Assembly (NCBI RefSeq): GCF_030362835.1
Contig: NZ_JAUCGQ010000001.1
Location: 1,839,461-1,903,460 of the forward strand
Direction of reading: 5' to 3'
DNA: 64,000 bases
Source of the DNA: Cellulomonas alba
Lineage (GTDB): Bacteria; Actinomycetota; Actinomycetes; Actinomycetales; Cellulomonadaceae
The notes under the pieces are model-generated. The model saw only the letters and a program-made list of their open reading frames with translations, made no database searches and had not been told where the DNA came from. Position numbers and translations under genes: made by a program. The number at the start of each line of letters is the position of its first letter. Within the stretch, counting starts at the first letter, position 1. Of this stretch, positions 15,442-19,620 are shown piece by piece.

Positions 15442-15516
15442 GCCACCTCCCAGGCGGGTCCACGCTAGCGGCGCCGGGGTCGTGGCGGTATGCCACGAGG
15501 TCGACGGGTCGAGGGG

Positions 15517-15584
15517 GTCAGCCGGTCGCGGGCGTCAGCCGGTCGAGGAGGTCAGCCGGTCGAGGAGGTCAGCCGTTCGACGCG
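15517..15584. repeat. Four tandem copies of a 17-base unit (GTCAGCCGGTCGAGGAG)
   Basis: Copies begin at 15517, 15534, 15551 and 15568; the middle two differ in four bases or fewer from each other and from the consensus, and the outer two are more diverged. The array lies between the CD225-like gene and the glycosyltransferase and includes the stop codon of the former. Because 17 is not a multiple of three, changes in copy number near the gene end could change its C terminus. Confidence 0.75.
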
Positions 15585-16252
15585 GTCGGCGCCGGGCTGG
15601 GCGTCGCCGGGCCGCCGCCCTGGCCGGGCGACGGCGGCGCGAAGCCGCGGCCTCCGCCGTCGCCGTACCCCTTGCCGAACCCGTTCCCCGACCCCGGCAT
15701 GCCGGGCATCATCTGCCCGGGACCCGGCCGGTGCGGCACGACGCCCGGGCCGCCGTACGGCTCGATCCGCGACGAGCCGTCGCGGTCGTCCCAGCCGAAG
15801 CCGTCGCGGTGGTCGTGGACGGCGACGGCGATGACGAGCGCCCACACGAACGTGGCGATCAGCGAGAGCAGGATGATCGCGCCGCCGACGCAGACGCTGA
15901 CGATCCCCCAGCGCCGCGCCGACGCGGCCTCGCGGTCGGCCGTCACCACGTCGCCCGCACCCGCGGCACGCGCGGACCGGTGCGACGCGAGCAGCGCCGG
16001 GATCGCGGTCGGCCAGAACACGATGACGGCCGCGATCACCCAGCCGATCGGTGCGGGGTACTGCCGCGGCAGCGGCGGCTGGGTGCCGTAGGCCCCGGGC
16101 GGCCCGTAGCCACCGGGCGGGTAGGCGCCCCGCGGCGGTGCCGGGGGAACGCTGCCCGGCGCGGGCGGGACGCTGCCCGGCGCAGGCGGGACGGGGGTGG
16201 TCGGCGGAACGGCGGCGTTCGCGTTCGCGTCCGGCGTCGGGTCGGGATCCAT
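15569..16252 (-). CDS. CD225/dispanin-like membrane protein with Pro-rich ends
   Basis: A 227-residue protein. A Pro/Gly/Tyr-rich N-terminal region with PPAPGSVPPAPGSVPPAP repeats precedes two transmembrane segments (about 80-100, IGWVIAAVIVFWPTAIPALL, and 125-150, WGIVSVCVGGAIILLSLIA). The loop ASHRSARAAGAGDVVTADREAASARRW matches the conserved loop of the CD225/dispanin family. The C-terminal third is Gly/Pro/Met-rich and probably disordered. Bacterial members are uncharacterised. GGAGA lies five bases before the ATG; TACCGT on the minus strand at 16288-16283 is a candidate -10. Confidence 0.75.
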   Translation of the reverse strand: MDPDPTPDANANAAVPPTTPVPPAPGSVPPAPGSVPPAPPRGAYPPGGYGPPGAYGTQPPLPRQYPAPIGWVIAAVIVFWPTAIPALLASHRSARAAGAGDVVTADREAASARRWGIVSVCVGGAIILLSLIATFVWALVIAVAVHDHRDGFGWDDRDGSSRIEPYGGPGVVPHRPGPGQMMPGMPGSGNGFGKGYGDGGGRGFAPPSPGQGGGPATPSPAPTASNG

Positions 16253-16378
16253 GGCGTCTCCAGCGCTCGTAGCGACCACTCGACGGTAGGCCCGGCACCT
16301 GGGACGGCGCTATGAACCAAGGTCCCGGGGCGCCGCGTCACCCGCGCGGAGCACGCATCCCGCGCGGGCGGGGCGACG

Positions 16379-18529
16379 TCAGGGGGTCAGGACGACGAGC
16401 CGCTCGGTGGCGCGGGTCATCGCGACGTACCGGTCGACCGCGCCCTCGACGCCGTCGCCGAACGCTGCGGGGTCCACGAGCACCACCAGGTCGAACTCCA
16501 GCCCCTTGACGAGCTCGGGCGTCAGCGAGCGCACCCGGTCCCGCTCCACGGTCGCGAGCCCGAACCCCGGCGCACCGACCACGCACGCCACGCCGTCGTG
16601 CGCCTCGAGCCACGCGCCGACGACCGCGTCGAGCTCCGCCACGCGCGCGTGCCGCACGGGGACGCCGGACGTCCGCACCGACGTCGGCACGTTCGCGTCG
16701 GGCAGCGCGGCCCGGATCACCGGCTCCGCCTCGGCCATCACCTCGGCCGGCGTGCGGTAGTTGATGGTGAGCGACGCCTGCGCGACCTCGCCGAGCCCGA
16801 CGCGCTCGAGCCGATCGTGCCACGACTCGGTGAACCCGTGCCGCGCCTGCGCGCGGTCGCCGACCACGGTCAGGCTCCGCGAGGGGCAGCGCGCGATCAG
16901 CATCTGCCACTCGGCGTCGGTCAGCTCCTGCGCCTCGTCCACCACGACGTGCGCGAACGGGCCGGCGAGCCGGTCGGGCTCGGGGGTCGGCACGGACGCG
17001 TCGTCGTCGAGCGCGGACTGCAGGTCCTCACCGCGGAGCATCGTCATGACGAGCATCTCGCTGTCGTCGGACGCGATCAGGTCGTCGACGACGCGCGAGC
17101 GATACTCGCGCTCCGCGGCGCGCGTCGCCTCCTGCCGCCGGCGCCGTCCGCCGGCCTCCGGGTCGCCGAGCCGCAGGCGAGCAGCGTCGAGCAGCGGCAG
17201 GTCGGACGTCGTCCACCGCGCGGGCTCGTCGCGCTGCAGCAGCCGCACCTCGTCGGTCGTCAGCCACGGCGCGCAGAGGCGCAGGTACGCGGGCACGGAC
17301 CACAGGTCTCCGACGAGCTCGGTGGGCTCGAGCACGGGCCACGCACCGTTGAACGCGCGCGTCAGCTCGCGGTTGCGGGTCAGCGAGCGGCGAACCAGGT
17401 CGGCCGGGGCCTCGTCGCCGTGCTTGTCGACGAGGATCTCCACCAGCGCGTCCCAGATCTGCTCGCGCGCCTCGTTGTGCGGGGTGCCCGGGTCGGGCGC
17501 CGCGAACGCCTCCGCCCAGTCGGCGGTGGAGAGCCAGACGTCGGCCCACTCGGTCTCGACGCTCACGCCCTCCGTCGGGGGTCGTTCGGAGAACCGCACC
17601 GCGGGCTCGATCGCCTCGACCATCGCGGCGGACGCCTTGAGTCGCGCCACCTCGGGGTCGGGCTCGGGCAGCGCCGACGGGCCCTCGGGCACGAGGTCGC
17701 GCAGCGTGCACGTCAGCACGCCCTCCTCGCCGAGGCTCGGCAGCACGTCCGAGACGTACGCGAGGTAGGGGTCGGACGGCCCGACGACGAGCACGCCACC
17801 GCGGCGGGCCGACAGCCGCGGCTCGGAGTAGAGCAGGTACGCCGCGCGGTGCAGCGCGACCACCGTCTTGCCCGTGCCAGGGCCGCCGTCGACCACGAGG
17901 GCGCCGCGCGACCCGGCCCGGATGATCGCGTCCTGGTCGGACTGGATCGTGCCGAGCACGTCGCGCATGCGCGCGGTCCGGGTGCCGCCGAGGCTCGCCA
18001 GGAACGCCGACTCGTCGTCGAGGGACGCCAGGTGCACGGCTCCGTCGACCGTGAACGCCTCGTCCCAGTAGTCGACGACGCGGCCCGCGGTCCACCGGTA
18101 GCGGCGGCGGCTGACGAGGCGCATCGGGTCCGCGCGCGTCGCGCCGAAGAACGGCTCGGCAGCGGGCGAGCGCCAGTCGACGAGCAGGCGCCGCCCTGCG
18201 CGGTCCGTCAGCCCGAGCCGCCCGACGTAGACCGCGAGGCCCGTCTCGTCGACCATCCGGCCGAGGCACAGGTCCAGCCCGTACCGCCGCAGCGTGCGCA
18301 GCCGCGCCGACAGCCGGTGCACCTCCTGGTCGCGGTCGAGCGCCGCCTGGCCGCTTCGGGCCGGAGCTCGGCGGGCGGCCGCGAGCCGCTCCTCGAGCTC
18401 CGCCACCTGCTCGGCGAGGCTCGCGCCGATCGTCGCGAAATGGTGCTCGTCGGCGGCGATCAGCTCGGGGTCCGCCTTCGCGGCGAGGCGCTCCGGCAGG
18501 TCGAAGGCGGACGTGGTCGCACGGTTCAC
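16379..18529 (-). CDS. helD: HelD-family RNA polymerase-associated ATPase (HelR type)
   Basis: A 716-residue superfamily 1 ATPase. An N-terminal coiled-coil arm (about 30-95; AEQVAELEERLAAARR and DQEVHRLSARLRTLRR) precedes the Walker A motif GGPGTGKTVVALHR and the helicase motif VVVDEAQELTD; the C-terminal part has INYRTPAEVM and VAMTRATERLVVL. This is the HelD architecture, in which the arms reach into RNA polymerase channels and recycle stalled polymerase. Some actinobacterial HelD proteins (HelR) displace rifamycins and give resistance. The rifamycin-associated element upstream makes that role likely here. The GTG start was chosen for its GGAG seven bases upstream; the residues before it are leader. 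Confidence 0.9.
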   Translation of the reverse strand: MNRATTSAFDLPERLAAKADPELIAADEHHFATIGASLAEQVAELEERLAAARRAPARSGQAALDRDQEVHRLSARLRTLRRYGLDLCLGRMVDETGLAVYVGRLGLTDRAGRRLLVDWRSPAAEPFFGATRADPMRLVSRRRYRWTAGRVVDYWDEAFTVDGAVHLASLDDESAFLASLGGTRTARMRDVLGTIQSDQDAIIRAGSRGALVVDGGPGTGKTVVALHRAAYLLYSEPRLSARRGGVLVVGPSDPYLAYVSDVLPSLGEEGVLTCTLRDLVPEGPSALPEPDPEVARLKASAAMVEAIEPAVRFSERPPTEGVSVETEWADVWLSTADWAEAFAAPDPGTPHNEAREQIWDALVEILVDKHGDEAPADLVRRSLTRNRELTRAFNGAWPVLEPTELVGDLWSVPAYLRLCAPWLTTDEVRLLQRDEPARWTTSDLPLLDAARLRLGDPEAGGRRRRQEATRAAEREYRSRVVDDLIASDDSEMLVMTMLRGEDLQSALDDDASVPTPEPDRLAGPFAHVVVDEAQELTDAEWQMLIARCPSRSLTVVGDRAQARHGFTESWHDRLERVGLGEVAQASLTINYRTPAEVMAEAEPVIRAALPDANVPTSVRTSGVPVRHARVAELDAVVGAWLEAHDGVACVVGAPGFGLATVERDRVRSLTPELVKGLEFDLVVLVDPAAFGDGVEGAVDRYVAMTRATERLVVLTP

Positions 18530-18607
18530 GGGCAGGCTCCGGGGCGTCGGGGGCGGCGCGTGCGCGGACGGTGGCGCACGGCCGAGCGGCGATTCTTCGC
18601 CTCGACC

Positions 18608-18627
18608 GGGGCCTTGCCACAAGCCCC
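18608..18627 (-). promoter_or_regulatory. Rifamycin-associated element (RAE) upstream of helD
   Basis: On the minus strand the sequence reads GGGGCTTG-TGG-CAAGGCCCC, an imperfect inverted repeat matching the published rifamycin-associated element found before rifamycin resistance genes, as recalled here. It lies 79 bases before the helD start. A -10-like TATAGC (18640-18635, minus) ends eight bases before it, so the element would lie in the first transcribed bases. It implies that helD is induced when rifamycins inhibit RNA polymerase. Confidence 0.8.
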
Positions 18628-18642
18628 CGGGCTCGCTATACG
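18614..18642 (+). promoter_or_regulatory. Sigma70-type promoter TTGCCA-17-TATACG for the kinase-like gene
   Basis: TTGCCA (18614-18619) and TATACG (18637-18642) with a 17-base spacer form one of the best promoters in the window. The -35 box lies inside the RAE of the divergent helD promoter, so the two promoters overlap face to face. Confidence 0.6.
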
Positions 18643-18656
18643 TTGAGAAGGAGGAG

Positions 18657-18680
18657 GACGGCCGGGGCAACCCGGCCGTC
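18657..18680 (+). terminator. Stem-loop with GCAA tetraloop in the kinase leader, possible attenuator
   Basis: GACGGCCGGG-GCAA-CCCGGCCGTC forms a perfect 10-base-pair stem closed by a GNRA tetraloop, followed by TTCGCG. It lies just downstream of the predicted transcription start and 55 bases before the coding region. The AAGGAGGAGG sequence directly before it has no start codon after it. It could be an intrinsic terminator or attenuator; the T tract is very short. Confidence 0.45.
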
Positions 18681-18735
18681 TTCGCGTCACGGACCGAAGA
18701 CACGGACCACGGCTGCCGCCTGGCAAGGTGAGCCG

Positions 18736-19620
18736 GTGACCGAGACGACCACCGAGCTGTTGACGCGCCTGCACGGGGCCGGACTGACCGACGTCACCGC
18801 CGTGGAGCCGGCGACCGGTGGGCTCGCCGCCACCGCCGGGATCGCGACCCGTCCGGACGGCTCGCGCGTGTTCGTCAAGGCGTTCCTCGACCACGAGCTC
18901 CCCGACGCGTTCGCGACCGAGGCGGAGGGCCTGGTCGCGCTGCGCGAGCTCGGCGGCGTCGCCACGCCCGAGGTGCTCGTCGCGAGCCCCGACCTGCTCG
19001 TCCTGTCCGTGCTCGAGCCGCGGCCCGCGACCGCGGCGCTCTGGGAGCGGCTCGCGCACGAGCTCGCCCGGCTCCACACGAGCACCGTCCACGCCCGGTT
19101 CGGCTGGCACCGCGACAACTGGCTCGGCCGGCGCCGCCAGGTCAACACGTGGGAGGACGACGGCTTCACGTTCTTCGCGCGGCACCGGCTGCTGCGTTGG
19201 CTCGGTGAGCCGCGCGTCGACGCGGCGCTCGCGCCCGACGACCGCGCCGCGCTGGAGCGCCTCTGCGGCCGGCTGCCCGAGCTGCTCCCCGAGCGGCCCG
19301 CGTGCCTGGCGCACGGCGACCTCTGGATGGCGAACGTCATGGCGACGCCCGACGAGCGGCCCGCGCTCATCGACCCGGCCGTCTCGTACACCTGGGCCGA
19401 GGTCGACCTCGCGCACCTGTGGACGACCGTGCCGCCGCCCGAGGCCGCGTCGTTCTTCGACCTCTACGCGGAGCTGACGGGGCTCGACGCCGGCTGGCGC
19501 GAGCGGATGCCGATCCTCCAGCTGCGCCAGCACCTCGCGGTGATCGCGCAGTTCGACGACGACTGGGGTGCGGCCGGCATCGTGCGCGAGACGCTCGCGC
19601 CGTTCCGCACCCGTCGCTGA
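18736..19620 (+). CDS. Fructosamine kinase-family protein (protein kinase-like phosphotransferase fold)
   Basis: A 294-residue protein of the fructosamine-3-kinase/aminoglycoside phosphotransferase group. Visible motifs are VFVKAF (ATP-binding Lys), the catalytic loop CLAHGDLWMANVM with the expected Asp and Asn, and the metal-binding LIDPAVSYTWAEVDLAHL. FGWHRDNWLG is typical of fructosamine kinases. These enzymes phosphorylate sugar adducts on proteins or amines, starting deglycation. The GTG start has AAGGTGAG just upstream. Its promoter overlaps the helD RAE, so a link to rifamycin stress is possible but unproven. Confidence 0.85.
   Translation: MTETTTELLTRLHGAGLTDVTAVEPATGGLAATAGIATRPDGSRVFVKAFLDHELPDAFATEAEGLVALRELGGVATPEVLVASPDLLVLSVLEPRPATAALWERLAHELARLHTSTVHARFGWHRDNWLGRRRQVNTWEDDGFTFFARHRLLRWLGEPRVDAALAPDDRAALERLCGRLPELLPERPACLAHGDLWMANVMATPDERPALIDPAVSYTWAEVDLAHLWTTVPPPEAASFFDLYAELTGLDAGWRERMPILQLRQHLAVIAQFDDDWGAAGIVRETLAPFRTRR

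What the first reader, a model, noticed from the sequence alone, without database searches (positions are those of the whole stretch)
18608..18642. Rifamycin-associated element drives helD, face to face with a fructosamine kinase-like gene
The minus strand carries GGGGCTTG-TGG-CAAGGCCCC directly after a -10-like box and before a HelD-family gene, the setting described for rifamycin-inducible HelR. The -35 box of the divergent kinase-like gene (TTGCCA-17-TATACG) lies inside the element, so both promoters share it. That would place a deglycation-type kinase under rifamycin control, which I do not know to be described.
Basis: partly seen in the sequence, partly recalled or inferred. Interest (0 to 1): 0.75.

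Follow-up and report, generated by a model that had tools for sequence, protein, structure and literature searches.

The report
Two-way promoter at rifamycin-resistance gene helR
A known drug-response DNA element really does sit in front of a rifamycin-protection gene here, but the sugar-repair kinase next door is probably an accidental neighbour; comparing about 160 copies shows that the element nearly always carries a second, backward-facing promoter-like signal, which gives a testable idea of how bacteria might sense rifamycins.

Summary
A full-match rifamycin-associated element (RAE) lies at 18608-18627 (minus), the only one in this Cellulomonas genome, in front of a true HelR gene. The divergent gene is a fructosamine-kinase family member.

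RAE plus helR is textbook. Rifamycin control of the kinase is not supported: the kinase is absent from the other 47 Cellulomonas helR-RAE loci, its orthologues lie elsewhere, and a 13-14 bp hairpin separates promoter from gene.

The 'kinase promoter' is a generic part of RAE modules. In 126 non-redundant RAE loci (helR, rox, rph, rgt, arr), a TANNNT box pointing away from the resistance gene starts exactly 21 bp from the palindrome centre in 118; a NANNNT box pointing towards the gene starts exactly 21 bp away on the other side in 120. A further 36 loci, mostly mycobacterial, gave 36 and 35. So the palindrome supplies the -35 (TTGNNN) for two divergent promoters with 19-bp spacers. The backward one has a conserved G at predicted +1 and, in about a third of loci, a terminator-like hairpin starting there.

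No RNA data were available, and the primary RAE papers could not be read, so novelty of this geometry is unconfirmed.

The parts
18608..18627 (-). Rifamycin-associated element (RAE), palindrome GGGGCTTG-TGG-CAAGGCCCC, centre 18618
   Evidence: aligned with 126 non-redundant RAE loci
18617..18622 (-). -35-like TTGTGG of the helR promoter, inside the RAE
18592..18597 (-). -10 AAGAAT of the helR promoter, 19-bp spacer; NANNNT at this exact offset in 120/126 RAE loci and 35/36 in a further set
18614..18619 (+). -35-like TTGCCA of the backward (kinase-facing) promoter, inside the RAE
18639..18644 (+). -10 TACGTT of the backward promoter, 19-bp spacer; TANNNT at this exact offset in 118/126 RAE loci and 36/36 in a further set
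18651..18651 (+). Predicted start (+1) of the backward transcript; the matching base is G in 123/126 loci
   Evidence: prediction, no RNA data
18653..18686 (+). Terminator-like hairpin, 13-14 bp stem with GCAA loop, no clear T run, between predicted +1 and the kinase
   Evidence: -30.7 kcal/mol, z -4.69
16379..18529 (-). helR, 716 aa, RNA polymerase recycling ATPase HelR
18736..19620 (+). Fructosamine-kinase family gene (FN3K-like), 294 aa, divergent neighbour; probably not part of the module

Best explanation
The locus is an ordinary RAE-helR rifamycin-resistance module of Cellulomonas, and the kinase is a chance neighbour. The palindrome acts as a shared -35 region for two divergent, mutually exclusive sigma-70-type promoters placed symmetrically, with -10 boxes 21-26 bp from the centre on each side (shown as sequence conservation; promoter activity is inferred). 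One drives helR. The other faces backwards and often runs into a start-proximal hairpin, so there it would give at most a short RNA (inferred). The kinase happens to lie behind such a hairpin here, so rifamycin control of it is unlikely (inferred). My favoured mechanism for induction, at about 0.3, is competition: without drug the backward promoter, which has the better -10 (TANNTT against CAGAAT), holds RNA polymerase; sub-inhibitory rifamycin shifts the balance to the helR promoter.
For: RAE match and uniqueness. HelR family. RAE in front of HelR throughout the genus. Kinase orthologue next to an RAE only in this genome among all RAE loci held; where helR and kinase share a contig in other genomes they lie more than 100 kb apart. 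Symmetric -10 boxes at exactly 21 bp on either side in 118 and 120 of 126 loci, median 0-1 at other offsets, repeated in a further, mostly mycobacterial set of 36, across five unrelated gene families. Chance palindromes from other phyla lack the pair. No conserved -35 for a same-direction promoter at the upstream box (TTG at background at every spacing), while the backward reading has T at -1 in 89 and G at +1 in 123 of 126. Hairpins start at the predicted +1, 44/126 strong stems against 2% in shuffles, followed by T-rich tails, 0.50 against 0.22, p 1.6e-8.
Against: No transcript data. In M. smegmatis two helD promoters pointing the same way as the gene were mapped (PMC10719064), so the upstream box may be used in the helR direction at least there. 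In B. subtilis, moving two convergent promoters close enough to clash abolished rifampicin induction (PMC12802891), which argues against plain competition as the sensor. The RAE arms (GGGG/CCCC) are more conserved than a -35 box needs, which suggests a bound protein. The window's hairpin lacks a T run.
Confidence: 0.72

Rival explanations
1. One reading: the shared element puts the fructosamine-kinase-like gene under rifamycin control together with helR.
For: TTGCCA-17-TATACG faces the kinase, and no other strong promoter was recognised in the 85 bp leader.
Against: Pairing found in no other genome; the same backward promoter is present in front of unrelated neighbours in nearly all RAE loci; strong hairpin in the leader.
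Confidence: 0.1
2. An unknown dimeric, rifamycin-responsive protein binds the RAE palindrome, covers both -35 boxes, and represses or activates both promoters. (Compatible with the two-promoter geometry; a rival only to the competition mechanism.)
For: Perfect dyad with arms beyond the -35 boxes; literature suggests an unknown factor (PMC10719064; PMC12802891).
Against: No such factor is named in the papers I could read; centring on the -35 boxes of two promoters explains part of the dyad without one.
Confidence: 0.4
3. The upstream TATA block is a second promoter in the helR direction (P1), as annotated in M. smegmatis, and the backward reading is an artefact of the -10 hexamer looking alike on both strands.
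For: Experimental P1 start in M. smegmatis about 20 bp upstream of the RAE (PMC10719064); CANNNT is present in the helR direction in 113/126 loci.
Against: No -35 at any spacing in that direction; first base T in the backward reading (118) against C in the helR direction; +1 G and terminator tails fit the backward strand.
Confidence: 0.25

Closest known systems
Rifamycin-associated element (RAE) in front of rox, rgt, arr and helR in Actinobacteria
   Same: Same 19-bp palindrome, same downstream gene families, overlap with the -35 of the gene's promoter (PMC10719064, PMC8655204)
   Different: The window copy is typical. Not found in the papers I could read: the symmetric backward -10 at a fixed 21 bp and its start-proximal hairpin
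B. subtilis helD / pps dual-promoter rifampicin alarm (PMC12802891)
   Same: A gene promoter paired with an opposing promoter at a rifampicin-protection gene
   Different: There the promoters are convergent, 39 bp apart, with no RAE; here they are divergent and share one -35 region
HelR (Class II HelD; NCBIfam NF041254)
   Same: Full-length family match; 347 bits to the HelD structure 6yxu
   Different: Nothing notable

Membership tests
RAE | 19-bp palindrome GGGGCTTGNNNCAAGSCCC | tested here: met
   0 mismatches
RAE | Lies in the upstream region of a rifamycin-resistance gene | tested here: met
   helR start 89 bp from the palindrome centre
RAE | Required for induction by rifamycins | not testable with these tools
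   needs RNA or reporter data
HelR | Match to the curated HelR model above its cut-off | tested here: met
   1224.5 bits against 750
HelR | Primary-channel loop that displaces rifamycin | tested here: inconclusive
   alignment to 6yxu spans residues 26-714, but the loop was not located residue by residue
Fructosamine/ketosamine kinase family (PF03881) | Pfam model above gathering score | tested here: met
   138.6 bits against 22.4
Fructosamine/ketosamine kinase family (PF03881) | Deglycating kinase activity | not testable with these tools
   needs an enzyme assay
B. subtilis-type convergent dual-promoter alarm | Two convergent promoters with non-overlapping RNA polymerase sites | tested here: not met
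   the pair here is divergent and overlaps at the -35 boxes

The most novel reading that the evidence does not exclude
The RAE is not mainly a regulator's operator but the shared -35 of a symmetric pair of divergent promoters, the backward one idling (in many loci against its own terminator), and RNA polymerase itself is the rifamycin sensor through competition between the two. This would hold for helR, rox, rph, rgt and arr alike.
Probability: 0.28. Interest if true: 0.85.

Novelty: new member of a known kind. Interest (0 to 1): 0.5.

Why it matters
How the RAE senses rifamycins is stated as unsolved (PMC12802891, PMC10719064). A fixed, symmetric, backward-facing promoter-like signal conserved across five resistance-gene families turns this into a simple experiment: map starts on both strands with and without rifampicin, and mutate the backward -10. 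The kinase link, by contrast, probably leads nowhere.

Tried and rejected
Searched for the kinase beside other RAEs: none, apart from a distant 29% identity kinase-like match downstream of helR in L154. Looked for upstream sequence shared with kinase orthologues: none seen; many orthologues have a TACNNT-like box close to the start codon and the window has CAAGGT, so an own leaderless promoter is possible but unproven. Tested a same-direction P1 -35: none. Considered a MerR-type promoter because of the 19-bp spacers: rejected, the palindrome is centred on the -35 boxes and not in the spacer. Tested whether the antisense terminator is universal: it is not, strong stems in 44/126 and none in the 6 arr loci of that set. 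The primary RAE and HelR papers I tried are not held.

Full report
What is there. The minus strand at 18608-18627 reads GGGGCTTGTGGCAAGGCCCC, a full match to the RAE pattern and the only site within two mismatches in the 3.8 Mb genome. The pattern itself was taken from the finding and my own knowledge of the RAE; the literature I could read gives it only as a 19-bp palindrome. The gene it precedes, 16379-18529 minus, is HelR by NCBIfam (1224.5 bits, cut-off 750) and matches a HelD of known structure over residues 26-714. The divergent gene 18736-19620 is a PF03881 fructosamine-kinase family protein. The genome is a Cellulomonas: genus member G033 has a contig of the same length, and a near-identical helR-RAE region, as a Cellulomonas rhizosphaerae record.

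Is the kinase part of it? In the genus, 57 of 82 genomes carry an RAE-like site within two mismatches. I aligned 48 Cellulomonas helR-RAE loci (L001 and L002 are the same locus). The kinase orthologue lies beside the RAE only in the window's own genome; flanks held were about 0.8 to 4.5 kb. Orthologues at 61-80% identity occur in about 22 other genomes, elsewhere: for example G027 has the RAE at 571 kb and the kinase at 324 kb on one contig, G017 490 and 304 kb. Other window neighbours are rarely shared either. So the pairing is a local arrangement.

What the 'kinase promoter' is. Genes next to them cluster into rifampin monooxygenase (rox), Rgt, Rph and Arr families; representatives match the corresponding NCBIfam models, some below the strict cut-off. 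With the genus loci this gives 161 oriented sites; 126 remain after removing near-identical ones and those with short flanks. Counting from the palindrome centre c, a TANNNT box on the strand pointing away from the gene starts at exactly 21 bp in 118 of 126, and NANNNT pointing towards the gene starts at exactly 21 bp on the other side in 120; medians at other offsets are 0 and 1. A further set of 36 loci, mainly mycobacterial arr and rox, gave 36 and 35; a few of its loci come from genomes already sampled. Palindromes not near a resistance gene, mostly from other phyla or with two mismatches, lack the pair. Both -10 boxes are 19 bp from a TTGNNN contained in the palindrome. In the window these are TTGCCA (18614-18619) / TACGTT (18639-18644) rightwards and TTGTGG (18617-18622) / AAGAAT (18592-18597) leftwards.

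Direction of the upstream box. A TANNNT hexamer always looks like NANNNT on the other strand, so A and T positions alone do not tell direction. Three things favour the backward reading: its first base is T (118/126) whereas the helR-direction reading begins with C (113/126); the helR direction has no -35, TTG being at background for spacers 13-23; and the backward strand has T at -1 in 89 and G at +1 in 123 of 126. Against it stands the mapped same-direction P1 of M. smegmatis (PMC10719064), which I could not compare at sequence level. The forward -10 also begins with C in most loci, so the first-base argument is only moderate.

The hairpin. From the predicted backward +1, the first 33 nt fold better than shuffles (mean z -1.59, against about 0 in two control stretches). 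Strong stems occur in 44/126 loci against 2% of shuffles, most begin at the predicted +1, and the 9 nt after the stem are 50% T against 22% over the region (p 1.6e-8). This looks like an intrinsic terminator placed directly at the start of the backward transcript. It is not universal. In the window the stem is among the strongest (-30.7 kcal/mol, z -4.69) but has no T run.

How it may work. Two overlapping promoters that share a -35 region should exclude each other. The backward -10 is closer to consensus than the forward one (CAGAAT consensus, C at position 1), so without drug it may hold RNA polymerase and make only a short RNA. I suggest that rifamycin shifts this balance, by analogy with the opposing promoters of B. 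subtilis helD (PMC12802891). The analogy is imperfect: there the promoters are convergent and a version with clashing sites lost induction. A dimeric regulator on the palindrome remains at least as likely. Geometry is shown; direction is well supported; mechanism is inference.

Verdict. The locus itself is a new member of a known kind. The kinase claim is unlikely. The by-product, a symmetric backward promoter-like arm in nearly every RAE examined, is the part worth following; whether it has been noted before could not be checked because the primary papers I tried are not in the library.

Noticed in passing
L056, L067, L092, L053, L137, L122: RAE-like palindromes precede rph or rox-like genes outside the usual actinobacterial genera: Chloroflexota MAGs, Rubrobacteraceae, Conexibacter and the myxobacteria Nannocystis and Minicystis.
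   Followed up: partly
L070, L078, L088, L120: Rhizobiales (Bradyrhizobium, Mesorhizobium, Devosia) have a variant core GGGGCTTGAAGCAAGCCCC before rox-like monooxygenases, with slightly shifted -10 boxes.
   Followed up: partly
L057, L099, L133, L147, L149: In several Streptomyces and relatives one RAE precedes rgt and helR follows as the second gene.
   Followed up: no
L066:1486-2025: Two RAEs about 520 bp apart, back to back, one in front of rgt and one in front of helR.
   Followed up: no
several helR loci, e.g. L043, L083, L145: A GTG that fits the helR start lies about 35 bp from the palindrome centre, close to the predicted +1, suggesting leaderless helR mRNA.
   Followed up: no
window 15569-16279: A CD225/dispanin-family protein gene follows helR; relatives also lie near helR in four other Cellulomonas loci (L018, L030, L172, L177).
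   Followed up: no
window 15500-15580: Short tandem repeat of ggtcagccggtcgagg-like units.
   Followed up: no
L154:6955-7827: A distant kinase-like match (29% identity, E 2e-4) lies directly downstream of helR in another Cellulomonas.
   Followed up: no
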